36,458 bases of DNA, taken from positions 1 through 36,458 of the forward strand of contig JANWKE010000148.1 in assembly GCA_025451535.1 (NCBI GenBank), written 5' to 3'. This stretch comes from Verrucomicrobiia bacterium. GTDB taxonomy: Bacteria > Verrucomicrobiota > Verrucomicrobiia > Limisphaerales > UBA11358. Position 1 is the first letter of the stretch; the number at the start of each line of letters is the position of its first letter. Below the pieces are notes generated by a model, which did not search any database, was not told the DNA's origin, and saw only the letters and a list, made by a program, of their open reading frames with translations. A program made the translations under genes and the position numbers. Positions 4,890 to 35,942 of this stretch are shown here, in pieces.

Positions 4890-6110
<1,221 letters not shown>

Positions 6111-6114
6111 CCAA

Positions 6115-6993
6115 TTGAATACTGATGACAAAATCGAAATTCCCGAAGTAGTAGGAGACGATGCGAAAGTTGAGCAGATCAACAATCAAATCGCGGAATT
6201 GACTCCTTCGGGACGAAAAAGATTCTTCGAGAAATTCTTGCTGGCGGCACTTGGCAGCGTTCCTTGGGTTGGTGGGTTCATCAGCACTATGGCCAGCCTT
6301 AAAACTGAAGCTCCCGACTTTAAAGCGGATGATTTGAGAACGCAGTGGTTGAATGAACATAAGAAGAAAATCCGACAGTTGGCGGAAACACTCAGCGAAA
6401 TCTCCGACAGATTTGAAAAACTGGGTAGCCAGATTGATGAGCGTATACAAAGCGAAGAGTATCTAAATCTTGTGCGCAAGGCATTCCGCACATGGGATCG
6501 AGCCGATACCGATGAAAAGCGTAGATATGTTTTAAACCTCCTCGTGAACGCTGGTGGCACGCGCTTGTGTTCTGACGATGTTGTTCGTTTGTTTATAGAT
6601 TGGTTGAACCTCTATCACGAAGCTCATTTCGCGGTGATTAACCAGATTTTCCACAACTCTGGTGCAACGAGGTTTGATATCTGGACGGAGATATATGGAA
6701 ATCTTCCGAGAGAAGACTCGGCAGAAGCTGATCTTTACAAGATGTTAATTCGTGATCTAAGCATAGGTGGCGTCATCCGGCAGGAACGAGAAACTACTGT
6801 GGACGGTCACTTTCTGCGTAAAAATCCAAGGCGTTCCAAGGCGCTCGCGCCGACCACAATGGAATCCGCATTTGAGGATACGAAGCCATACATGCTGACT
6901 GCACTTGGACGGCAATTCGTTCACTACACAATGACTGACACAGTGGGACGACTCGGGTCGGGAGACGGTTCTGCCGGCCAGCCAACACAATGA
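6115..6993 (+). CDS. Uncharacterised helical protein, first gene of the TIR-containing cassette
   Basis: A 292-residue protein I do not recognise. A TTG at 6115, five bases after the argG stop, gives the sensible N-terminus MNTDDKIEIPEVV; the frame is open back to a TTG at 6088 inside argG, but that adds only Arg-rich residues. Around residues 33-59 is a basic patch then a hydrophobic stretch (FLLAALGSVPWVGGFISTMASL), possibly a membrane-inserting helix. Next comes a charged helical region (about 75-105), likely coiled coil. From about 115 to the end is a compact part with RKAFRTWDRADTDEKRRYV, DDVVRLFIDWL and a winged-helix-like DLYKMLIRDLSIGGVIRQ segment. Base composition is more AT-rich than argG. 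With the two following genes it suggests a membrane-linked effector or sensor, by context only. Confidence 0.7.
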   Translation: MNTDDKIEIPEVVGDDAKVEQINNQIAELTPSGRKRFFEKFLLAALGSVPWVGGFISTMASLKTEAPDFKADDLRTQWLNEHKKKIRQLAETLSEISDRFEKLGSQIDERIQSEEYLNLVRKAFRTWDRADTDEKRRYVLNLLVNAGGTRLCSDDVVRLFIDWLNLYHEAHFAVINQIFHNSGATRFDIWTEIYGNLPREDSAEADLYKMLIRDLSIGGVIRQERETTVDGHFLRKNPRRSKALAPTTMESAFEDTKPYMLTALGRQFVHYTMTDTVGRLGSGDGSAGQPTQ

Positions 6994-7086
6994 ATTTGCC
7001 AGCGCATGCCTTAATCCGGCCCAACGTCCTACATTCCGCAAAACGAGGTCGCGGCGCATGTGCAGGGTAGAAGATTTGCTTCTTTT

Positions 7087-7100
7087 TGTAAGCGCTTGCA
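7087..7100. promoter_or_regulatory. LacI/CcpA-type operator-like palindrome
   Basis: TGTAAGCGCTTGCA in the 147-bp gap ahead of the dCTP-deaminase-like gene differs at one position from the classical TGTAAGCGCTTACA operator of LacI/GalR-family repressors (the cre motif of Firmicutes). Its core AAGCGCTT is a perfect palindrome 40 bp before the ATG at 7141. One 14-bp near-match can arise by chance and no regulator gene is adjacent. Confidence 0.25.
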
Positions 7101-7140
7101 TTTCGGACGGTGGGGGCTCAACATGCACTAACCCGCGATT

Positions 7141-8155
7141 ATGGCGACAATCCTCAACGACAATGAACTGAAAAAGTTGCTTGGGACAGTCATAACTTAA
7201 TGGCGACCCTAGCTCGGTTCGCCCAAATTCCTATGTTCTGCGTCTCGGAGACGAAGGTGAATTCCTGAATGCGAGTAAGGAATTCACGCTCGGCAAAACC
7301 AAAAAGGGGATCCGAGTTCCGCCGGGGCATTCGGTCGCAATCACTTCATTGGAAACGATTGATTTTCGTCCGGCCACGGTGGAGAAAATTTATCCCGGAT
7401 GCGCGCTTCATGCCATCCTCAGCCCGTGCACCGATCTTTCCAGAGAAGGGATTGTCGCTCCGACAACCCAGATTGATGCCGGCTATCACGGAACTCTGAA
7501 TTGGACAATTACGAACACGTCGAACCAAGAACGGCGATTTCTCCAAAAGGAACGGATTTATCGGGTAACAATTCTGAAGTTAGAAGAAGGCGAGGTTCCG
7601 CTAAAGTGTTACGAGGGCAGTTACCAAGGTCAAACTGGTTACGTGCGCTCACGGCGCACCGGCGCCCCTGTAGGTATGCGAGACAACGAGTGGGAAGATG
7701 CGGTTGCCGAGGGTGGGCCTGAAGCCTTACTCGATAACCTTATCAAGTCAGGGTATCCCTGGCACGCCTTGGCTCAGAAACTCAAGACAATAGATCAGCA
7801 GTTCAAAATAGTTTCAGATGAATATGGGGCCATTCATGATTCGCTCAATAACCTGAGCATAGAAGTTGATACGCTCAATCGTCAGCAGAACGAAGCGTCG
7901 CGCTCCATTCCACAAGTGATTAGTACAACGCTGAGGGACGAGGCTGCGTCGCTGCAGAACCGCTGGCTTCTCACTTCAGGCTCATTGCTTTTGGCGCTGT
8001 TGGGACTGATTGTTTCGTTCACCAGTAGTCAAAACGCGATCAGTTTTCTCAAGGCTAATGGGGCTTGGATCGGTGTGGTGCTGGTTCTCATTGGTGTGAT
8101 TTCTGCCGTAGTCGCAATTCGCAGGCCACGACCTAAAGCACCTGTACAGAAATGA
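7141..8155 (+). CDS. Degenerate dCTP deaminase/dUTPase-like domain fused to coiled coil and two TM helices; apparent frameshift
   Basis: The gene begins at ATG 7141 (MATILNDNELKKLLGTVIT), hits TAA at 7198, and continues in the next frame from 7199 (NGDPSSVRPNSYVLRLG...) to TGA 8153-8155. Removing one base near 7196-7198 restores a 337-residue protein. Residues about 1-145 follow the dCTP deaminase/dUTPase fold: ILND.EL at the start, SYVLRLG, VPPGHSVAITSLETI, DLSREGIVAPTTQIDAGYHGTL and ITNTS. The catalytic RSS triplet of dCTP deaminases is CTD here and the family's active-site Glu appears to be Thr, so deamination is unlikely; nucleotide binding or sensing is possible. Residues about 205-265 are coiled-coil-like, and two helices (about 276-293, 309-326) precede a basic tail. 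The second frame alone is open with a TTG at 7349. Sequencing error, true mutation and frameshifting remain possible. Confidence 0.78.
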
Positions 8156-8210
8156 TGCTCATACCGCGCTGTACCTGAAGGTTGCGGTGAAGATACAGAG
8201 GAAAAAATAG
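8144..8210 (+). repeat. Degenerate copies of the argG 3' end
   Basis: Two nearby segments resemble the last codons of argG (6075-6110). First, 8144-8155 (GTACAGAAATGA) matches argG 6099-6110 (GTGCAGAAATGA) at 11 of 12 positions, so both genes end in VQK-stop. Second, 8166-8210 reads ALYLKVAVKIQRKK-stop in one frame, against [12 protein letters not shown]-stop in ArgG, with about two thirds of bases shared. The second copy lies between the membrane gene and the TIR gene, outside any good ORF. This is the footprint expected if elements inserted at the argG terminus and duplicated it. Confidence 0.5.
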
Positions 8211-8223
8211 AAAGGGCAATGCA

Positions 8224-9297
8224 ATGAGTGAATCAGAGAAAGGCAAAACCGCCGCCACAGAGAATGACGTTCTTGCATCGTCGGCATCCGGACCGCTTGT
8301 ATTCATCAGTCACGACACCCGGGATGCCGATCTCGCAGAGGCGTTCAGCAAATTACTCAAGAGCGTGAGTGCGGGGATGATCAAGTCATTTCGTTCTTCC
8401 GACAAGAAAGGCACTGAGGGAATTGATTTCGGAGACGAATGGTATAAGAGGTTGATGACAAAATTGCAGAGTACGTCGGATGTTGTTTGCCTGTTCTCCG
8501 AGAGAAGCCTCGACCGCCCATGGATATTGTATGAAGCAGGGGTCGCAAAGGGTAAGTTGAATACTCCCGTTCTAGGAATCGCGTTAGGCGTTCCATTGAG
8601 TCGCGTCAGCACCGGACCGTTCTATCAATTCCAGAACTGTGACGACAGCGAGACGGATTTAACGAAGCTCGTTCAACAACTTGCTCGGCGCGTTCCTACG
8701 CTTGAACTTGATGCGGATGTTGTCAAAGCACAGGTCACCGCGTTCAAGGTAACAGAAGATGAAATCCTGAAGAAATTGGCGAAGCGGGAAGGAAAAGTGG
8801 AAAAAGAAACCGCTGAGGACAGTCCTGTGGCAAAATTGGTTGAAGAAATGAAAGCTTTGCCATCACGTGTGGCCGAACGTCTCGCCGGAAACGGTGAACC
8901 TTTTCGCCGCAGAAAACTCCGCCGATTCCATCCAATGATGTTCGAAGAGATGATGCACATGACTGGCGACCCAAGCGACCCAGTGGGGATTCTCATGGCT
9001 GCGAGCATGATCAAAGACGATGTTCCTTGGCTTTATGAATTGGCAATGGAAGTATATCGAGCAGTGAAGTCAGGCGAACTTGCCGCCATCGAACATGAAA
9101 TGCACCGGCTTCGACGCTTCACTGAGTTCACTATGCACGGGCCATTCATGGAGGAAATGGGTTTTGGAGACCGAGAAAGTCATATGTTCCTCATGGAATT
9201 TCCACGCATGCTTGAACACATGCTTGAACGCTCGCTGCGTGAGAAAAAATCTGGTCCACCGCCACGGCGGCCGAGGCTGCCGAAGGAGCCGGGCTAA
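8224..9297 (+). CDS. TIR-domain protein, probable NAD-cleaving or signalling effector
   Basis: A 357-residue protein with a TIR domain at about residues 24-160. It starts with PLVFISHDTRDADLAEAFSKLL (strand A and helix A), continues with SDVVCLFSERSLDRPWILYEAGVAKG, and Glu104 in WILYEAG sits where NADase TIR domains have their catalytic Glu. Bacterial TIR proteins degrade NAD or make cyclic ADP-ribose signals in anti-phage systems such as Thoeris, TIR-CBASS and TIR-STING; the exact class is not evident here. The remaining 195 residues begin with a charged linker (KVEKETAEDSP, LVEEMKALPSRVAERL) and end in a Met- and Arg-rich helical region I do not recognise. No membrane helix. An AAAGGG sequence seven bases upstream supports ATG 8224. 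It lies 68 bp after the membrane gene, same strand. Confidence 0.85.
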   Translation: MSESEKGKTAATENDVLASSASGPLVFISHDTRDADLAEAFSKLLKSVSAGMIKSFRSSDKKGTEGIDFGDEWYKRLMTKLQSTSDVVCLFSERSLDRPWILYEAGVAKGKLNTPVLGIALGVPLSRVSTGPFYQFQNCDDSETDLTKLVQQLARRVPTLELDADVVKAQVTAFKVTEDEILKKLAKREGKVEKETAEDSPVAKLVEEMKALPSRVAERLAGNGEPFRRRKLRRFHPMMFEEMMHMTGDPSDPVGILMAASMIKDDVPWLYELAMEVYRAVKSGELAAIEHEMHRLRRFTEFTMHGPFMEEMGFGDRESHMFLMEFPRMLEHMLERSLREKKSGPPPRRPRLPKEPG

Positions 9298-9314
9298 AAC
9301 CGCATTCCGAGAAT

Positions 9315-9403
9315 CCCAACGGGGTTCCATCCATCGGCCCGGGGTTGGAGCGCCCGCCGCCGCTACGCTTTGGCGCGGCAAGGAAGCGACTACCCTGGGT
9401 CAC
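9315..9403. repeat. Interspersed repeat downstream of the TIR gene
   Basis: Begins CCAACGGGGTTCCATCCATC, contains CCCGGGGTTGG and ends CTACCCTGGGTCACC; the last two are imperfect inverted copies around a GC-rich centre. The pattern resembles an intergenic repeat I associate with Verrucomicrobia/Planctomycetes genomes (from memory). It marks the right edge of the TIR cassette. Confidence 0.45.
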
Positions 9404-9461
9404 CGTTTTGACGTGATTTGATTCAAACTCTTCAGGGTTGATTTTAATTTATGATTCACCA

Positions 9462-9498
9462 CCCAGCGTAACCCCGACTCCGTCGGGGCAACGCCGGG
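9462..9498. repeat. Strong palindrome (CCCxGCGT..CCCCGA / TCGGGG..ACGCxGGG)
   Basis: CCCAGCGTAACCCCGA pairs with TCGGGGCAACGCCGGG around a five-base loop, giving about 16 bp per arm with few mismatches. No T run follows, so it is a REP-like palindrome rather than a typical terminator, though it may block read-through from the TIR gene. Confidence 0.55.
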
Positions 9499-9534
9499 CT
9501 GAATGACACAATCCCTTTGGGATATTTCTGCATA

Positions 9535-9571
9535 CCTCTGCGGCTTTGCGACTTGGCATCTTTGCGTTAAA
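9535..9571. repeat. CGCAAAG-type spacer repeat
   Basis: On the minus strand this reads TTTAACGCAAAG-ATGCCAAGTCGCAAAG-CCGCAGAGG, built from CGCAAAG units. A related run (AACGCAAAGACGCAAAGACG) lies at 22645-22664 upstream of nuoG. Non-coding. With the two preceding repeats it fills the 373-bp gap between the TIR gene and padR; nothing else is seen there apart from the padR promoter. Confidence 0.45.
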
Positions 9572-9634
9572 TCGTTGCTTTAAATGAGTTTGCCGGTGTT
9601 CAAATCCGCGCCGCCGTAGCCTCACAGTTTGAGG

Positions 9635-9663
9635 TTGACAAGCCTCATGGTTATAGGTATTAT
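9635..9663 (+). promoter_or_regulatory. Near-consensus sigma-70 promoter of the PadR gene
   Basis: TTGACA at 9635-9640, a 17-bp spacer and TATTAT at 9658-9663. The regulator's ATG is at 9671, so the predicted transcription start falls at about the first base of the start codon. The -35 box lies in an imperfect palindrome (GAGGTTGACAAGCCTC, 9631-9646) that could be an autoregulatory operator. Confidence 0.65.
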
Positions 9664-9670
9664 CACCGTG

Positions 9671-10006
9671 ATGAAGAAAACCAATCCCAGTTTTTTGAAC
9701 GGTGTCCCGGAACTGCTGGTGCTGCGGCTGCTGGCCCGCCAGGAAATGTACGGGTACCAGATCGTGGAGGAAATCCGGACCCGGACGGGGGAGGCTTTGG
9801 CTTTTGGCGAGGGTTGCATTTACCCGTACCTGCATTATCTGGAAGCGGAAAAGCAGGTGAGCAGCCGGCGGCAAGAGGTGGAGGGCCGGAACCGCAATTA
9901 TTACAAACTCACCGCCCGCGGTCGGAAACGGCTCGACGAATTAACCAGCGAATGGAATCGCGTGACCACCGGTGTCTCGTTGTTAATGGAGGAACGCCGT
10001 GCCTGA
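9671..10006 (+). CDS. PadR family transcriptional regulator
   Basis: A 111-residue winged-helix repressor. The N-terminal part (FLNGVPELLVLRLLARQEMYGYQIVEEI) is the PadR signature, in which the conserved GYQI helix precedes the recognition helix. GCIYPYLHYLEAEKQVSSRR and GRNRNYYKLTARGRKRLDEL complete the wing and the start of the dimerisation helix. Length is that of the small PadR class. ATG 9671 is chosen because an upstream extension would run into the strong promoter. PadR proteins usually repress themselves and an adjacent membrane or transporter gene; here the next gene starts inside this one (GTG 9999), so the two form a translationally coupled regulator/membrane pair. Confidence 0.92.
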   Translation: MKKTNPSFLNGVPELLVLRLLARQEMYGYQIVEEIRTRTGEALAFGEGCIYPYLHYLEAEKQVSSRRQEVEGRNRNYYKLTARGRKRLDELTSEWNRVTTGVSLLMEERRA

Positions 10007-12731: not shown

Positions 12732-14177
12732 CTACAGCGCCAAAGCTTTGGCTGCTTCCGTGGCGAGGTTGAGCACCACGCTCGGAAACAGGCCGATCCA
12801 GAACATCCCGGCGATGCAAACGCAGGCGGCGAATTTGACCGACCCGGACAAAGGAATCGGCGACAAATCCGGCACATTCTTGCTCCAATAAATTGCGCGG
12901 ATGACGCCGAAATAGTAATAGAGCGAAATCACCACGCCAGCGAGCGCCGTGAAAGCGAGGCAATAGTAGCCATGATTGTGATTTATCGCGCCTTGCTGGA
13001 TGACGGCTTTCAGCAGCAGAAATTTCCCGAAGAAACCTGCCATCGGCGGAATACCCGCCAGTGACACCATGGCCAGCGTCAGGGTTGTGGCCAGTAACGG
13101 CGAGCGTTGATTCAAACCCGCGAGTCCCGAAATGTCCTCGCTGTCCAGGTGCCGCATCATGACGCAAATGACCAGGAACGCCGCCACCACCGTGAACAGA
13201 TAACCCGCCAGATAATAGAGCAGTGCCGCCTGCCCGGTGATGCTCAGCGCCGCCACGCCCAGCAGCAGATAGCCCGCGTGCGAGATGCTCGAATAACCGA
13301 GCAGCCGTCTCAAATTGCGTTGCGGCAGTGCGCACAGGTTGCCGTAAAGAATCGTGATGCCGGAAATGACGATGAGCAAATCCGCCCAGTGTTTCGCCAC
13401 GTCCGGCAGGGCGGTAAACAGCACGCGCAATAAAAGAACGAACCCGGCGGCCTTGGAACCGACGGCGAGAAAGGCTGTGGATGGTGTCGGTGCGCCCTGG
13501 TAAACGTCCGGCACCCAGATCTGAAACGGAAACGCCGCGATTTTGAAGCCGAGGCCAACGAGCACGAACAGCACGCCGATGAGGAAGATTTTGTTGGTCT
13601 CAAATTGCGCGGCCACCCTGGCCAGTTCGGTGAAATTCAGCTGGCCCGTGGTGCCCCACACCAGCGCGATGCCGAACACGAGAAACGCCGACGACAACGC
13701 GCCGAGGATCAGGTATTTCACGCCCGCTTCCAGTGAAACCAGCCGGCTGCGCTGGAAACTGGTCAGCACGTAAAACGTGATGGTGATCAGTTCGACGGAG
13801 ACAAAGAGCATGGCGAAGTCGTTGGCCGACGCCGCGAACAACATCCCCGACAGCGCAAAGGCAATGAGCGAGTAGTATTCGCTGATGCCACCGGCGATGC
13901 GGTCGGAAAATTCCAGCGACATGAACAGCACCAGCATGGCGGCAATCAGGAAGAACCGCTTGAAAAAGATCGCCAGTGTATCTTCCACGAACGCGCCGTG
14001 GAAAGCCGTGCCGGTGGTGGCGTCGCCCAGGTTCGTAATCAGCAGGGCTCCGAGCGTGGCGATGGCGAGGTAAGCCAGAAAGCGCCGGCGTTCGGGCGCG
14101 ACGAGGAAATCCGCCAGCATCAGCACCACGCCGAGCACAATCACCCAGAGTTCCAGACTCATCAAGGAAGCGTTCAT
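12732..14177 (-). CDS. nuoN: NADH-quinone oxidoreductase subunit N
   Basis: A 481-residue antiporter-like proton-pumping subunit of the membrane arm of complex I. It carries the proton_antipo_M pattern: ASANDFAMLFVSVELITITFYVLTSF, then LSSAFLVFGIALVWG, then WVPDVYQGAPTPSTAFLAVGSKAAGF containing the TM7-8 Lys, and RNLRRLLGYSSISHAGYLL. About 14 helices. ATG 14177 is chosen over TTG 14180; it shares a base with the nuoM stop (TGATG), so translation is coupled. It is the last gene of the cluster, followed by a palindromic element. C-terminal LATEAAKALAL is normal. Confidence 0.96.
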   Translation of the reverse strand: MNASLMSLELWVIVLGVVLMLADFLVAPERRRFLAYLAIATLGALLITNLGDATTGTAFHGAFVEDTLAIFFKRFFLIAAMLVLFMSLEFSDRIAGGISEYYSLIAFALSGMLFAASANDFAMLFVSVELITITFYVLTSFQRSRLVSLEAGVKYLILGALSSAFLVFGIALVWGTTGQLNFTELARVAAQFETNKIFLIGVLFVLVGLGFKIAAFPFQIWVPDVYQGAPTPSTAFLAVGSKAAGFVLLLRVLFTALPDVAKHWADLLIVISGITILYGNLCALPQRNLRRLLGYSSISHAGYLLLGVAALSITGQAALLYYLAGYLFTVVAAFLVICVMMRHLDSEDISGLAGLNQRSPLLATTLTLAMVSLAGIPPMAGFFGKFLLLKAVIQQGAINHNHGYYCLAFTALAGVVISLYYYFGVIRAIYWSKNVPDLSPIPLSGSVKFAACVCIAGMFWIGLFPSVVLNLATEAAKALAL

Positions 14178-15877
14178 CAATTTAAAATCGTGTTTTCTCC
14201 CAGGGCGACGCTGGAATTGTCGTGTAGCACCCGCGTCCCGCGGGTGGTTTCAGGCGTCGCGCCCGAAACCGCTTGCGGATGAAGCCCGCGATTGCCTGTG
14301 TGATCCACCCCAACCAGTTGCGCGCCGTCGCAATCCGGCGGGACGCCGAATTGAACCCGCCAGAGGCGGGTGCCACCCATGGCTACTGTTTCACCTCGCG
14401 CCATCGTCACAATTTTCTGCGCGTCGGGCGTGATTTTCTCCGTCAGCAGCCGCGGGAAACAACCGAACACGAACAGGCTCGCCAGCAACAGTGCATACGG
14501 CAGCTTGCGCCAGAGGCTCGTGGCGTCGGCCAGGCCCGCCCATTTGTCCGGCAACGGCCCGTGCAAAACGTTGCGAACGGCGCGGGTCATATAGACCGCG
14601 CCGATGATGAGCCCGCCCCACAGCGCCAGACCGGTCACGAGCGGGAACACCGTCCACGAGCCGAAGAACACCGTGACTTCACCGACGAAATTGGCAAAAC
14701 CCGGCAGTCCGCACCCGGCCATCGCGGCCATGAGCAGCGCGGTGCCAATGAACCGCAATTGCCGGCACAGCCCGCCGAGCTCGCTGATTTGGAGCGTACC
14801 GGTCTTTTGAAAAATGTAACCGCTCAGGGCAAACGTCAACGCCGCCAGGAAGCCATGCGCCACCATGATGAATTCCGCACCGGTCACGCCAATGAGGTTC
14901 AGGCTGGCGATGCCGAGGAAAATAAAGCCCATGTGCGCCACGCTGGAGTTGCCGATGAGCAGGTTGAGGTCCTTCTGCCGCATCGCCACCCAGCCGATGT
15001 AGAGGATGTTGCCGAGGCAAAGCCAGGCGAGGATTTGCATCCAGCTTTGCGCCGCCTGCGGCACCAGGGGCAGCGCGATGCGGATCAGACCGTACAGGCC
15101 GAATTTTTTCAGCACGCCCGCGTGCAACATGGAGGTGGGCGAGGGCGCGGAACCGTAACCCAGCGGCGCCCAGGAATGAAACGGCCAGAGCGAGACCAGA
15201 ATGCCGAACCCGAACAGCAGGAGCGGGAAAATGAAATTTTGGGCGTGCGCTGACAACGGTTGTTGCCGGATGTATTCCGTCAGTTTGGGAATGTCGAACG
15301 TGTTCGCGCCGGATTGCACGTAAAGGGCGATCAGCCCGATCAAGGCGATGAGCGCGCCGAGGCTCAGGTAAAGCGTGATCTGGAACGTGGCGTAATTCTT
15401 CCGTTCACCGCGGCCCCAGACGCCAATCATGATGAACGTCGGCACCAGCGCAAGTTCATGCAGGAAATAGAAGAAGAACAAATCCAGCGACGCAAAGGCG
15501 CCGAGGATGCCACCGCTCATCACCAGCAGCAGAATATAAAACTCCTTCTCGCGCTCCTTGATTTCCCACGCGCAACACGCCGCCGCAAAGGCGACGATGG
15601 CGCCCATCAAAATCAGGCCCACGTTCAAACCATCCACGCCGACGTGGTAACTGATGCCGAGCGATTCGACCCAGGGAACCTGCTGTACGAAACGGTAACC
15701 GTCCGCGTCGATGGGCGCGTGGCCATAGGCGCAGAACATTTTCACGGCCAGGACGGCCGAGATGAGCGTGGCGAGCACGGCGATACCGCGGATGATGACG
15801 CGGTAGTTGCGCGGCACGAACACCAATGCCAGCGCCACCACCAGCGGCCAGCCCAAAATGTAAGTTAACATCGACAT
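14177..15877 (-). CDS. nuoM: NADH-quinone oxidoreductase subunit M with a repeat-encoded C-terminal tail
   Basis: A 566-residue antiporter-like proton-pumping subunit. Diagnostic parts include FFYFLHELALVPTFIMIGVWG near residue 135, WPFHSWAPLGYGSAPSPTSMLHAGVLKKFGLYGL near 233, and IGNSSVAHMGFIFLG. The normal subunit ends around residue 498 (ITPDAQKIVTMARGE). The next ~52 residues (about 500-551) are translated from a palindromic repeat at 14224-14379 that occurs again at 22681-22836, and the final ~15 residues come from the sequence beyond it. The tail should lie in a soluble face after the last helix. Whether it is kept is unknown, but the frame runs right up to the start of nuoN. Confidence 0.95.
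   Translation of the reverse strand: MSMLTYILGWPLVVALALVFVPRNYRVIIRGIAVLATLISAVLAVKMFCAYGHAPIDADGYRFVQQVPWVESLGISYHVGVDGLNVGLILMGAIVAFAAACCAWEIKEREKEFYILLLVMSGGILGAFASLDLFFFYFLHELALVPTFIMIGVWGRGERKNYATFQITLYLSLGALIALIGLIALYVQSGANTFDIPKLTEYIRQQPLSAHAQNFIFPLLLFGFGILVSLWPFHSWAPLGYGSAPSPTSMLHAGVLKKFGLYGLIRIALPLVPQAAQSWMQILAWLCLGNILYIGWVAMRQKDLNLLIGNSSVAHMGFIFLGIASLNLIGVTGAEFIMVAHGFLAALTFALSGYIFQKTGTLQISELGGLCRQLRFIGTALLMAAMAGCGLPGFANFVGEVTVFFGSWTVFPLVTGLALWGGLIIGAVYMTRAVRNVLHGPLPDKWAGLADATSLWRKLPYALLLASLFVFGCFPRLLTEKITPDAQKIVTMARGETVAMGGTRLWRVQFGVPPDCDGAQLVGVDHTGNRGLHPQAVSGATPETTRGTRVLHDNSSVALGENTILN
14224..14379. repeat. 156-bp GTAGCAC repeat, copy A, inside the nuoM 3' end
   Basis: It begins GTAGCACCCGCGTCCCGCGG and ends GCGGGTGCCACCCA; the ends are an 11-bp inverted repeat with one mismatch. 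Copy B at 22681-22836 has exactly the same length, with conserved ends (including GACGCCGAATTGAACCCGCC) and a diverged centre. On the minus strand both copies are open in the same frame, giving related peptides (TRLWRVQFGVPP and TRLRRVQFGVSP; both contain TPETTRGTRVL). No target-site duplication was recognised. Confidence 0.75.
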
Positions 15878-22861: not shown

Positions 22862-24322
22862 TTAATGCGCAGTTGCCGATTCATGTTGCTGCGACGGCGT
22901 CGTGTCCGGGTCAATTTTTCCCTGCGCGCGGCGTTCCTCGTCGGCCTTGCCTTTGGCGATAAATTCGTCCTTAAATTTCGCGACAAAACTTTGCACCGGC
23001 CACGAGCAGGCCTCACCAAACGCGCATATCGTCCGGCCGCCGGGAATATTGTCGGCGATTTTAACCAGATAATCCGCGTCGCTCGCCCGGCCTTCGCCGT
23101 GCGTGAGCCGATGCAATGCCTTGCTCATCCAGAGCGAGCCTTCGCGGCAGGGCGTGCATTGGCCGCAGCTTTCGTGCGCGTAAAATTCAGCTATGTTGGC
23201 CAGCGCTTCGACAATGTCCACACTGTCATCCATCACGATGATGGCGCTGGAACCGCTCATGGAACCGGCGGCGATGAGCGAGTCGAAATCGTAAGGCAAA
23301 TCCAGCATGTCCATTTCCTGTTCGACCATCTGGCCGTCCGGACCTTTGCGCTTGAGCTTGAACTTCTCGCCCGCTTTGAAAACTTTCGCCGACGAACCAC
23401 CTGGAATAACGGCCTTCAGCTTGCGTGGTGGCCGGCCCGGCTCGGGCTCACGGAGACCGCCGCCAAACGCCGGATCGTTGATCAGCTGGCCGATAGTGAC
23501 CTTGCCGGTCTCGATTTCGTAGTAGCCGGGTCGTTTGACGTGGCCGCTGAGGCTGACAATGCGCGTGCCGGTATTGTTTGGGGTGCCGAGCTTGGCATAC
23601 TCCGCGCCGCCCAGCGCGACGATGTGTTTCACGTCGCACAGCGTCTCGACGTTGTTGACGATGGTCGGGCACATCCACAGGCCGAGCACGGCCGGGAAAT
23701 ACGGCGGCTTGATGCGGGGATACGGCCGCTTGCCTTCAAGCGATTCGATAAGGCCGGTTTACTCGCCGCAAATGTAGGCGCCGGCACCGCGATGAACGGA
23801 AATCTCCAGATCGTATCCGCGGCCAAGAATGTTTTTGCCGAGAAAATTCTTCGCGCGGGCTTCTTTCAACGCCCGGTTCAGCAGCTTCGCGCCTTCGGGC
23901 ATTTCGCCGCGGATGTAAATGTAGGCCAGCTTCACATCGTTCGCGAAGCACGAGATGATCATGCCCTCGATGAGCTGGTGCGGGTCCTTGTGGATGATCT
24001 GGCGGTCTTTGAACGTGCCCGGCTCGGATTCATCGGCGTTACAGATCAGGTAAATCGGCTTGCCGCTCTTGCGGTCAACGAAGCTCCATTTCAGCCCGCA
24101 GGAAAAGCCCGCGCCGCCGCGGCCGCGCAGGCCGGAGATCTTCACGTCCTCGCGGATTTGTTCCTGCGGCGACTGGGTTTTGCCATCGGGCAGGGTCCGG
24201 GGCGGTATCATCAACGCCTTCTTCAGCGCTTCGTAGCCGCCGTGGCGCAAATAACATTCGATGTCGGGCGTGTAACCCGGTTCATCGGCGTATTTTAAAA
24301 CCAGTTTGTATTCCTGCGGCAT
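22862..24322 (-). CDS. nuoF: NADH-quinone oxidoreductase subunit F, interrupted by an in-frame TAA
   Basis: The NADH- and FMN-binding subunit. From ATG 24322 it reads [17 protein letters not shown], then [18 protein letters not shown] (NADH/FMN glycine-rich site), [14 protein letters not shown], and GAGAYICGE. It is then stopped by TAA at 23759-23761 (codon 188). The same frame continues without a break as [30 protein letters not shown] and the N3 cluster motif [11 protein letters not shown], ending at TAA 22862-22864, about 486 codons in all. The stop occupies the second Glu of the conserved CGEET motif (GAA to TAA is one change). Sequencing error, recent nonsense mutation and read-through are all possible; as written the gene yields a 187-residue fragment without the iron-sulfur cluster. 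Confidence 0.93.
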
Positions 24323-24417
24323 GTTAAAGTGACAAGTGACGAGTGGCGAGTGACAGGTTGCGAAACGCACGGCTTGACTGGCTGACGAAACCCTTTAGCC
24401 TGTCAGACGTTCCGGCT

Positions 24418-35055: not shown

Positions 35056-35213
35056 ACGTGACTTTTGCGCATCTGGCATTTTATCGGCCAGAAACGGAAT
35101 TTTTAATTTCACACCCGTGTTGCAAGCAGGGTCTGTACCAAAAAAAGGCACAAACGTAAACAGAAATTTATGCGTTTTGACTTCGACACGGGCCTGTCTG
35201 CTAGACTGTGGCC

Positions 35214-35942
35214 GTGAGCAACGTCTTTTACGCCCCGGGTAAACATCGCGCCGCGAAGGTCAACGACCTTTTCGCCGCCATCGCGCGGCGTTATGACCTG
35301 CTCAACGACCTGCAAAGCTTTGGCCTCCACCGGCATTGGAAGCGCCAGGTTGTTGCCTTGGCCGACCTTCGTCCCGGCCAGCGCGCGCTGGATGCCTGTT
35401 GCGGCACGGGCGACATTGCCCTGGCCCTCAGCCAACAGGGCGCGGAAGTCACCGGCCTTGATTTCAGCCGGGCCATGCTCGAGATCGCGGAAACCCGCCG
35501 TCTGAAAAATACACAGTCCGCCACCGCCAATCCGAAATTCATCCAGGGCGACGCGCAGCAACTGCCTTTCCCGGACAACGCATTCGATGCCGTCACCGTC
35601 GGGTACGGTTTGCGCAATCTGGCTGGTTGGGAGACCGGTTTGCACGAAATGCTCCGCGTGGCCAAACCCGGCGGGCGGTTGGTGGTGCTGGATTTTGGCA
35701 AGCCGCCAAACGCCGTGTGGCGCGCGATTTATTTTACGCATCTGAAAATGACCGTGCCGTTGCTAGGCTGGCTGTTCTGCGGCAACGCGGATGCCTACGC
35801 CTACATCCTCGAATCATTGAAACATTACCCGGCTCAGGAAGGCGTCGCGGCGAAGATGCGGGAACTGAACCTGTCAAACGTGCGCGTCCTCAACCTGCTC
35901 GGCGGCGCCATGGCCATCAATTACGGGGAAAAGCCAAAATAA
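35214..35942 (+). CDS. ubiE: Demethylmenaquinone/ubiquinone methyltransferase
   Basis: A 242-residue SAM-dependent methyltransferase that carries out the last C-methylation of menaquinone (and ubiquinone where present). VNDLFAAIARRYDLLNDLQSFGLHRHWKRQ is the UbiE/MenG N-terminal signature; ALDACCGTGDIALALSQ is the SAM-binding motif I (usually DVAxGTGD); VTVGYGLRNLAGWETGLHEMLRVAKPGGRLVVLDF is the second diagnostic block. GTG 35214 (SNVFYAPGKHRAAKV) is preferred over GTG 35208, two codons upstream. A weak -10 (TAGACT, 35202-35207) sits immediately before it. The quinone product links it to the nuo cluster. Confidence 0.93.
   Translation: MSNVFYAPGKHRAAKVNDLFAAIARRYDLLNDLQSFGLHRHWKRQVVALADLRPGQRALDACCGTGDIALALSQQGAEVTGLDFSRAMLEIAETRRLKNTQSATANPKFIQGDAQQLPFPDNAFDAVTVGYGLRNLAGWETGLHEMLRVAKPGGRLVVLDFGKPPNAVWRAIYFTHLKMTVPLLGWLFCGNADAYAYILESLKHYPAQEGVAAKMRELNLSNVRVLNLLGGAMAINYGEKPK

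What the first reader, a model, noticed from the sequence alone, without database searches (positions are those of the whole stretch)
7141..8155. dCTP-deaminase-like membrane protein: full start only recovered by correcting a frameshift
MATILNDNELKKLLGTVIT ends at TAA 7198, and the next frame continues at 7199 with NGDPSSVRPNSYVLRLG, exactly where Dcd-type proteins continue. One extra base near 7196-7198 explains it. The domain would be missed by annotation that starts at an internal TTG (7349). The eroded RSS (now CTD) and missing Glu make it a probable non-catalytic nucleotide-binding module.
Basis: partly seen in the sequence, partly recalled or inferred. Interest (0 to 1): 0.7.

Follow-up and report, generated by a model that had tools for sequence, protein, structure and literature searches.

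The report
Frame-broken dCTP-deaminase-like membrane gene
The gene carries a one-base reading-frame break that none of its eight known relatives shares, and it belongs to a rare, seemingly uncharacterised family that joins a dCTP-deaminase/dUTPase-type domain to a membrane anchor, perhaps a phage-defence sensor.

Summary
From 7141 a 19-codon opening runs into TAA 7198-7200 and the matching protein continues in the next frame from 7199. All 8 homologues found carry this N-terminus in one frame; the window peptide ranks first of 46,746 stop-free 19-mers. Third-position differences predominate on both sides, so the break is recent or a sequence error; reads must decide. A programmed shift is unlikely.

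The fold is firm: the DCD part of an intact relative is predicted at pLDDT 87.6 and matches Dcd-fold enzymes at Z about 20. 'Non-catalytic' is not shown: the deaminase Glu is missing in 9 of 9 members, but also in the three solved relatives found by sequence, two of them titled dUTPase.

The larger finding is the family: DCD-type domain, helical linker, two hydrophobic segments. It is rare, scattered over distant phyla and matches no PADLOC model credibly; some copies lie near restriction or Schlafen-type genes. A nucleotide-sensing membrane effector of phage defence is my best guess; that function is inferred.

The parts
7141..7200 (+). N-terminal segment MATILNDNELKKLLGTVIT with stop TAA 7198-7200
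   Evidence: rank 1 of 46,746 windows; matches 8 of 8 homologous N-termini
7190..7200 (+). site of the net one-base frame break
   Evidence: DNA alignment: window alone has one extra column vs 7 of 7 homologues given
7199..7657 (+). rest of the DCD (dCTP deaminase/dUTPase-type) domain, frame 2
   Evidence: TIGR02274 3e-10 for P0001, below cut-off; PF22769 at E <= 0.01 in 9 of 9 members; fold of the intact relative's domain
7349..7351 (+). first ATG/GTG/TTG of frame 2 (TTG), where mechanical annotation would start
7427..7435 (+). CTD, at the place of Arg-Ser-Ser (8y1w, 9ln0) or Lys-Ser-Thr (ordinary Dcd here)
7475..7477 (+). Asp at the motif-3 place, kept in 9 of 9 members
7505..7507 (+). Thr at the place of the Dcd catalytic Glu (NWT in 9 of 9 members; TLE in 4 of 4 ordinary Dcd compared)
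7763..7945 (+). linker predicted helical in the family; coiled coil likely (limits approximate)
   Evidence: weak coiled-coil-type matches; helices in the low-confidence full-length model of L008
7958..8131 (+). two hydrophobic segments, P0001 residues 255-282 and 281-312 (membrane hairpin)
   Evidence: Kyte-Doolittle mean above 1.5

Best explanation
The locus is a recently broken copy of an uncharacterised, apparently horizontally spread bacterial family (my label: DCD-2TM). In an intact member a cytosolic dCTP-deaminase/dUTPase-fold domain, presumably a trimer, is joined by a helical linker to a C-terminal two-helix membrane hairpin. Most likely mechanism (inferred): the DCD domain binds a deoxynucleotide or a phage-made dNTP-metabolism protein, and its change of state opens or reorganises the hairpin so that the membrane is damaged when a phage upsets the nucleotide pool. 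In this genome a net one-base gain after codon 19 ends translation at TAA 7198; restart at TTG 7349 would lose about the first 70 residues, which include several strands of the fold, so the copy as sequenced is probably inactive. Shown: the break, the homologues with intact frames, the DCD fold, loss of the deaminase Glu, hydrophobic segments, rarity. Inferred: trimer, ligand, membrane action, defence role, and that the break exists in the cell.
For: Break. Recent: differences from 4 of 4 homologues compared peak at codon position 3 before and after the break (e.g. 4/3/12 and 6/6/14 against L008). Family: 8 homologues at 33-60% identity to P0001, aligned end to end; PF22769 in 9 of 9 members at E <= 0.01. 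Fold: AF2 of the DCD part of L008, pLDDT 87.6, pTM 0.83; best Z 20.5 over 154 residues at 1.9 A, then 20.0 for Thermococcus pacificus dUTPase and for Bacillus halodurans DCD-DUT. Two hydrophobic segments in 8 of 9 members. Patchy and rare: matches in 3 of 387 phylum genomes, own included; among 384 of the class only its own is strong (2 weak others); among 345 of the class of G442 only G442 is strong (5 weak others). Low-GC stretch 0.45-0.53 beside 0.60. Defence-type neighbours: TIR gene 68 bases downstream in the window; Eco57I-type restriction-methylase near L013, SLFN_AlbA_2 next to L005. Precedent for the idea: phage dUTPases as dUTP-dependent signalling proteins (PMC5593958, passages) and the two-TM SLATT domain predicted as a nucleotide-responsive pore (PMC7159879, passages).
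Against: No conserved partner: the TIR relative (L037) and the 6088-6993 relatives (L038, L039) have no DCD-2TM gene in the stretches held, and no relative of this TIR protein lies in the stretches around the 8 homologues (these differ in length, L007 has under 100 bases downstream). No PADLOC model at E <= 0.01 for any of 9 members. None found in plasmid records, phage records or viral contigs (one weak phage dUTPase hit, E 6e-3). Full-length model failed (pLDDT 49), so nothing is known of the linker-hairpin geometry. The break may be a sequence error.
Confidence: 0.45

Rival explanations
1. Sequence or assembly error: the gene is intact in the cell and only the assembled sequence is broken.
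For: Both halves are still constrained as coding and the N-terminus is fully family-like, as an artefact would leave them. The same contig has a second break, an in-frame TAA in nuoF where 3 of 3 relatives read Glu, and a weak TIR-type match on contig C87 of the genome holds a TAG.
Against: The site is not a homopolymer. No other frame shift in 20 window genes compared with relatives; 39 of 39 full-length ABC domains and 2 of 2 sulfatase domains in the genome uninterrupted. A second, uninterrupted nuoF-family gene exists in the genome (C71), so the nuoF stop could be a real mutation.
Confidence: 0.35
2. The DCD domain is a working membrane-anchored nucleotide hydrolase (dUTPase-like) for pool hygiene, not a sensor.
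For: Asp at the motif-3 place kept in 9 of 9; the motif-3 Asp is catalytic in dUTPases (PMC4827122, passages; that the two are the same position rests on my alignment and recall). Solved relatives found by sequence lack the Dcd Glu, and two are titled dUTPase. No other Dcd and no Dut was found in the genome at E <= 0.001.
Against: Motif 2 Ser-Ser/Ser-Thr replaced by Thr-Asp in 8 of 9 and Thr-Thr in L005; no match in 96 of 96 other relatives searched and no strong one in 383 others of the class, so it is no housekeeping gene of the group.
Confidence: 0.25
3. Programmed +1 frameshift at ACT TAA that makes the full protein.
For: Stop codon at the shift point; both halves constrained.
Against: 8 of 8 homologues have one frame; no RNA structure around and after the site beyond chance (z -0.03); the site does not resemble the release-factor-2 shift site (recalled).
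Confidence: 0.04
4. A DCD-like decoy: it is bound by phage anti-defence or dNTP-metabolism proteins and reports them to the membrane.
For: Deaminase Glu lost, fold kept; inactive enzyme copies as decoys are proposed in other conflict systems (PMC7159879, passages).
Against: No interaction evidence; overlaps with the best explanation.
Confidence: 0.15

Closest known systems
Dcd-fold dUTPases of archaea (P45, PDB 9ln0/9ln3; Thermococcus pacificus 8y1w; Sulfolobus tokodaii 2yzj/2zdc)
   Same: Fold over the DCD part (Z 18.0-20.5); no Glu at the deaminase position in 9ln0, 8y1w and 2yzj
   Different: Chains of 143-158 residues without linker or membrane part; 8y1w and 9ln0 keep Arg-Ser-Ser. Naming is mixed: 9ln0 and 8y1w are titled dUTPase but their molecule is named dCTP deaminase; 2yzj the other way round
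dCTP deaminase Dcd and bifunctional DCD-DUT (PF22769, TIGR02274)
   Same: Domain and fold; Bacillus halodurans DCD-DUT 4xjc ties at Z 20.0
   Different: Catalytic Glu and motif 2 lost, below the TIGR02274 cut-off (40.1 of 92.8 bits), linker and two hydrophobic segments added
SLATT and PycTM two-TM effectors of nucleotide-signal defence systems
   Same: Proposed membrane action through a short TM pair
   Different: Sensor domain is DCD-type; PycTM match only 0.013 in 1 of 9 members; no signal-making partner gene recognised
Phage dUTPases that act as signals on SaPI repressors
   Same: Same superfamily used for signalling in phage conflict (PMC5593958, passages)
   Different: Phage-encoded dUTPases that bind a repressor; no membrane part was mentioned in the passages seen

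Membership tests
dCTP deaminase (Dcd / DCD-DUT) | Dcd/dUTPase beta fold | tested here: met
   AF2 of L008 DCD part, pLDDT 87.6; Z 14.2-20.0 to the Dcd and DCD-DUT chains listed; window copy itself not folded alone
dCTP deaminase (Dcd / DCD-DUT) | catalytic Glu | tested here: not met
   Thr in 9 of 9 members; Glu in 4 of 4 ordinary Dcd compared
dCTP deaminase (Dcd / DCD-DUT) | score over the TIGR02274 cut-off | tested here: not met
   40.1 of 92.8 bits for P0001, 41 bits; frame 2 only
Pfam DCD (PF22769) | score over the gathering cut-off of 27 bits | tested here: inconclusive
   window 17.6 bits frame 2 only, 25.1 with the halves joined; intact L008 27.7
trimeric dUTPase (Dut) | motif-3 catalytic Asp | tested here: met
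   Asp in 9 of 9; equivalence to the Dut residue by alignment and recall
trimeric dUTPase (Dut) | motif-2 serines | tested here: not met
   Thr-Asp in 8 of 9, Thr-Thr in 1 of 9
trimeric dUTPase (Dut) | dUTP hydrolysis | not testable with these tools
   needs protein
known anti-phage systems of PADLOC-DB 2.0.0 | match to a system model | tested here: not met
   best E 0.013 over 9 members scanned; the neighbour TIR gene matches TIR-TM at 1.8e-11
two-TM membrane effector | two C-terminal membrane segments | tested here: met
   8 of 9 members by hydropathy, L010 shows one above the cut-off
two-TM membrane effector | membrane damage on signal | not testable with these tools
   needs experiment

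The most novel reading that the evidence does not exclude
DCD-2TM proteins are a new class of single-gene phage-defence effector: a retired dCTP-deaminase/dUTPase domain senses deoxynucleotide imbalance (or the phage enzymes that cause it) and fires an attached membrane hairpin.
Probability: 0.3. Interest if true: 0.7.

Novelty: new variant of a known kind. Interest (0 to 1): 0.4.

Why it matters
The frame break itself is ordinary. The family matches no model of the defence catalogue searched at E <= 0.01, and the paper searches listed nothing that, by title or abstract start, describes a Dcd-type domain fused to a membrane hairpin (most subscription journals are not in that library). If it senses dNTP pools, it would add a direct nucleotide sensor to phage defence. 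It also shows how a broken start can hide a domain: a gene model from TTG 7349 would lack about the first 70 residues of the fold.

Tried and rejected
Programmed frameshift: set aside for lack of a conserved site or structure. Integron cassette: the TIR relative in L037 lies beside what looks like an integrase gene (my reading of the ORFs), so I scanned for attC-like sites by a simple pattern-plus-fold test; none in window 5900-9700, L037, L005 or L007-L012; one place in L013 (both strands) and one at window 31942 judged chance. Conserved operon with TIR: not found. NuoM tail as another frame shift: no good match of the relatives' tails in another frame there. Full-length AF2 with 9 sequences: pLDDT 49, not used for fold search. 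Single-protein scans of viral and genome contigs found nothing; the alignment scan of genome contigs found 8, the alignment scans of viral contigs none; these scans look for short patterns first, so they are lower bounds. Weak matches and 52 other than G000 and G442: L020, L023, L024 and L027 read like ordinary Dcd; L021 lies opposite a long repeat-protein frame and is probably chance; L021, L025 and L026 were read on one strand only, and L025 and L026 stay unresolved. Papers: PMC10733785 passages gave nothing on residues; a search on broken defence genes gave nothing useful (listing). Rows dropped: the L005/L014 member was left out; the window copy, having no in-frame N-terminus, is not among the 8 N-termini; one shadow-frame match (35133-35837) was left out of the 20 genes.

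Full report
What is in the sequence. Frame 1 from ATG 7141 gives 19 codons and then TAA 7198-7200. Frame 2 is open from 7196 to 8155 (319 codons, protein P0001), and its first usual start codon is TTG 7349.

Is it more than chance. P0001 was used to find relatives: 2 other genomes in a phylum sample of 387 (3 matches with its own), none in 96 close relatives besides its own genome, and with a 3-row alignment 8 contigs in the genome collection, two of which are the same two genomes. So 8 distinct homologues are in hand: Victivallales, Kiritimatiellae, Methylomirabilota, Hydrogenedentota, Gammaproteobacteria, two Bacteroidota and another Verrucomicrobia MAG (record titles). All 8 begin with the same kind of segment in one frame with the rest. 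At DNA level the window alone has one extra column against 7 of 7 homologues given. The window's 19-mer is the best of 46,746 stop-free 19-mers of the window against the homologous N-termini (58.6; next 25.0; homologues among themselves 44.1-57.4). Differences from four homologues fall mostly on third codon positions on both sides of the break, so both parts were under protein-level constraint until recently, or still are.

Error or mutation. I cannot see reads. For error: the same contig carries an in-frame TAA in nuoF where 3 of 3 relatives have Glu; a weak TIR-type match on C87 of the genome holds a TAG. An interrupted nuoF match (one TGA) also turned up in one other genome, G051, of the 20 searched, so such stops occur in other assemblies too. 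Against: the site is no homopolymer, no frame shift was seen in 20 window genes covered by at least one of three relatives' stretches (13 nuo genes and 7 others, my count, leaving out shadow frames), and all 39 full-length ABC-transporter domains in the genome are uninterrupted; the other two of the 41 ABC rows are a domain cut by a contig end and a match below cut-off. Both sulfatase matches are uninterrupted. The two neighbouring genes of the low-GC stretch, 6088-6993 and the TIR gene 8224-9297, are open and match open relatives. I put a real mutation at about 0.6 and an error at about 0.35. A programmed shift is unlikely: no homologue has it and the RNA there folds no better than shuffles (z -0.03).

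What the protein is. P0001 matches TIGR02274 dCTP deaminase at 3e-10 but below cut-off, and all 9 members match PF22769 and phrog_1663 dCTP deaminase at E <= 0.01. The family profile finds 2yzj, 8y1w and 9ln0 in the PDB at 1.8e-15 to 1.8e-11. AlphaFold2 of the DCD part of the intact L008 gave pLDDT 87.6, closest to Dcd-fold enzymes (9ln0 Z 20.5, 8y1w 20.0, 4xjc 20.0). The window copy was not folded alone. The C-terminal part is helical in a poor full-length model (pLDDT 49) and ends in two hydrophobic segments in 8 of 9 members.

Catalysis. The Glu of Dcd (TLE in the 4 ordinary Dcd compared) is Thr in 9 of 9 members, so deamination is improbable. The three solved relatives found by sequence have Met, Met and Ala there, and 9ln0 and 8y1w are titled dUTPase, although their molecule is named dCTP deaminase; so the missing Glu does not show an inactive domain. 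The Asp at the motif-3 place, which I take to be the residue that is catalytic in dUTPases (PMC4827122, passages), is kept in 9 of 9; the 4 ordinary Dcd have Glu in that column. Motif 2 is Thr-Asp in 8 of 9 and Thr-Thr in one, which argues against ordinary triphosphate binding. I leave sensor against weak hydrolase open, leaning to sensor.

Context. The stretch 6050-9300 has GC 0.45-0.53 beside 0.60 upstream, fitting acquisition. A TIR gene follows 68 bases after the DCD gene (TIR_2 just under cut-off; PADLOC TIR-TM 1.8e-11). Other members lie by an Eco57I-type restriction-methylase (L013), SLFN_AlbA_2 (L005), DUF790 (L007), a PIN gene (L008), Uma2 (L011) and an IS1-type transposase (L012) (ten neighbour genes scanned, three without a match; no neighbour of L010 was scanned). 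No partner is constant. No match in plasmid records, one weak dUTPase hit in phage records, none in viral contigs. In this genome no other Dcd and no Dut was found at E <= 0.001, which does not exclude divergent ones.

Mechanism. My best guess is a membrane-tethered DCD-type sensor that reacts to dNTP imbalance or to a phage enzyme and acts through its hairpin; in this genome it is off because of the frame break. Steps shown: domain, fold, residues, hydrophobic segments, break. Steps inferred: oligomer, ligand, membrane action, defence. The signalling use of phage dUTPases (PMC5593958, passages) and the predicted two-TM SLATT pores (PMC7159879, passages) are precedents, not tests.

Novelty. 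A new domain architecture of a known superfamily; no listed paper described it by title or abstract start (listings only). The broken copy adds little by itself.

Noticed in passing
22862-24370 (-), stop at 23759-23761: nuoF is interrupted by an in-frame TAA after ...GAGAYICGE where three relatives read Glu; a second uninterrupted nuoF-family gene exists on contig C71.
   Followed up: partly
8224-9297 (+): TIR-type gene (PF13676 9.2e-6, just under cut-off; PADLOC TIR-TM 1.8e-11); a 45-49% identical open relative in another genome of the phylum (L037) lies beside integrase-like ORFs.
   Followed up: partly
6088-6993 (+): ORF of 301 aa without a credible Pfam family; 72% and 46-48% identical relatives in 2 other genomes of 337 searched (own included), patchy like its neighbours.
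   Followed up: partly
14177-14408 (-): NuoM has a C-terminal tail unlike those of two relatives; no good trace of the relatives' tails in another frame there.
   Followed up: partly
G000:C87:8582-8911 (own genome, outside the window): A second, weak TIR-type match (36% identity) with one TAG inside.
   Followed up: no
whole genome G000: No Dcd other than this gene and no trimeric Dut at E <= 0.001, so the control of dUTP is unclear.
   Followed up: no
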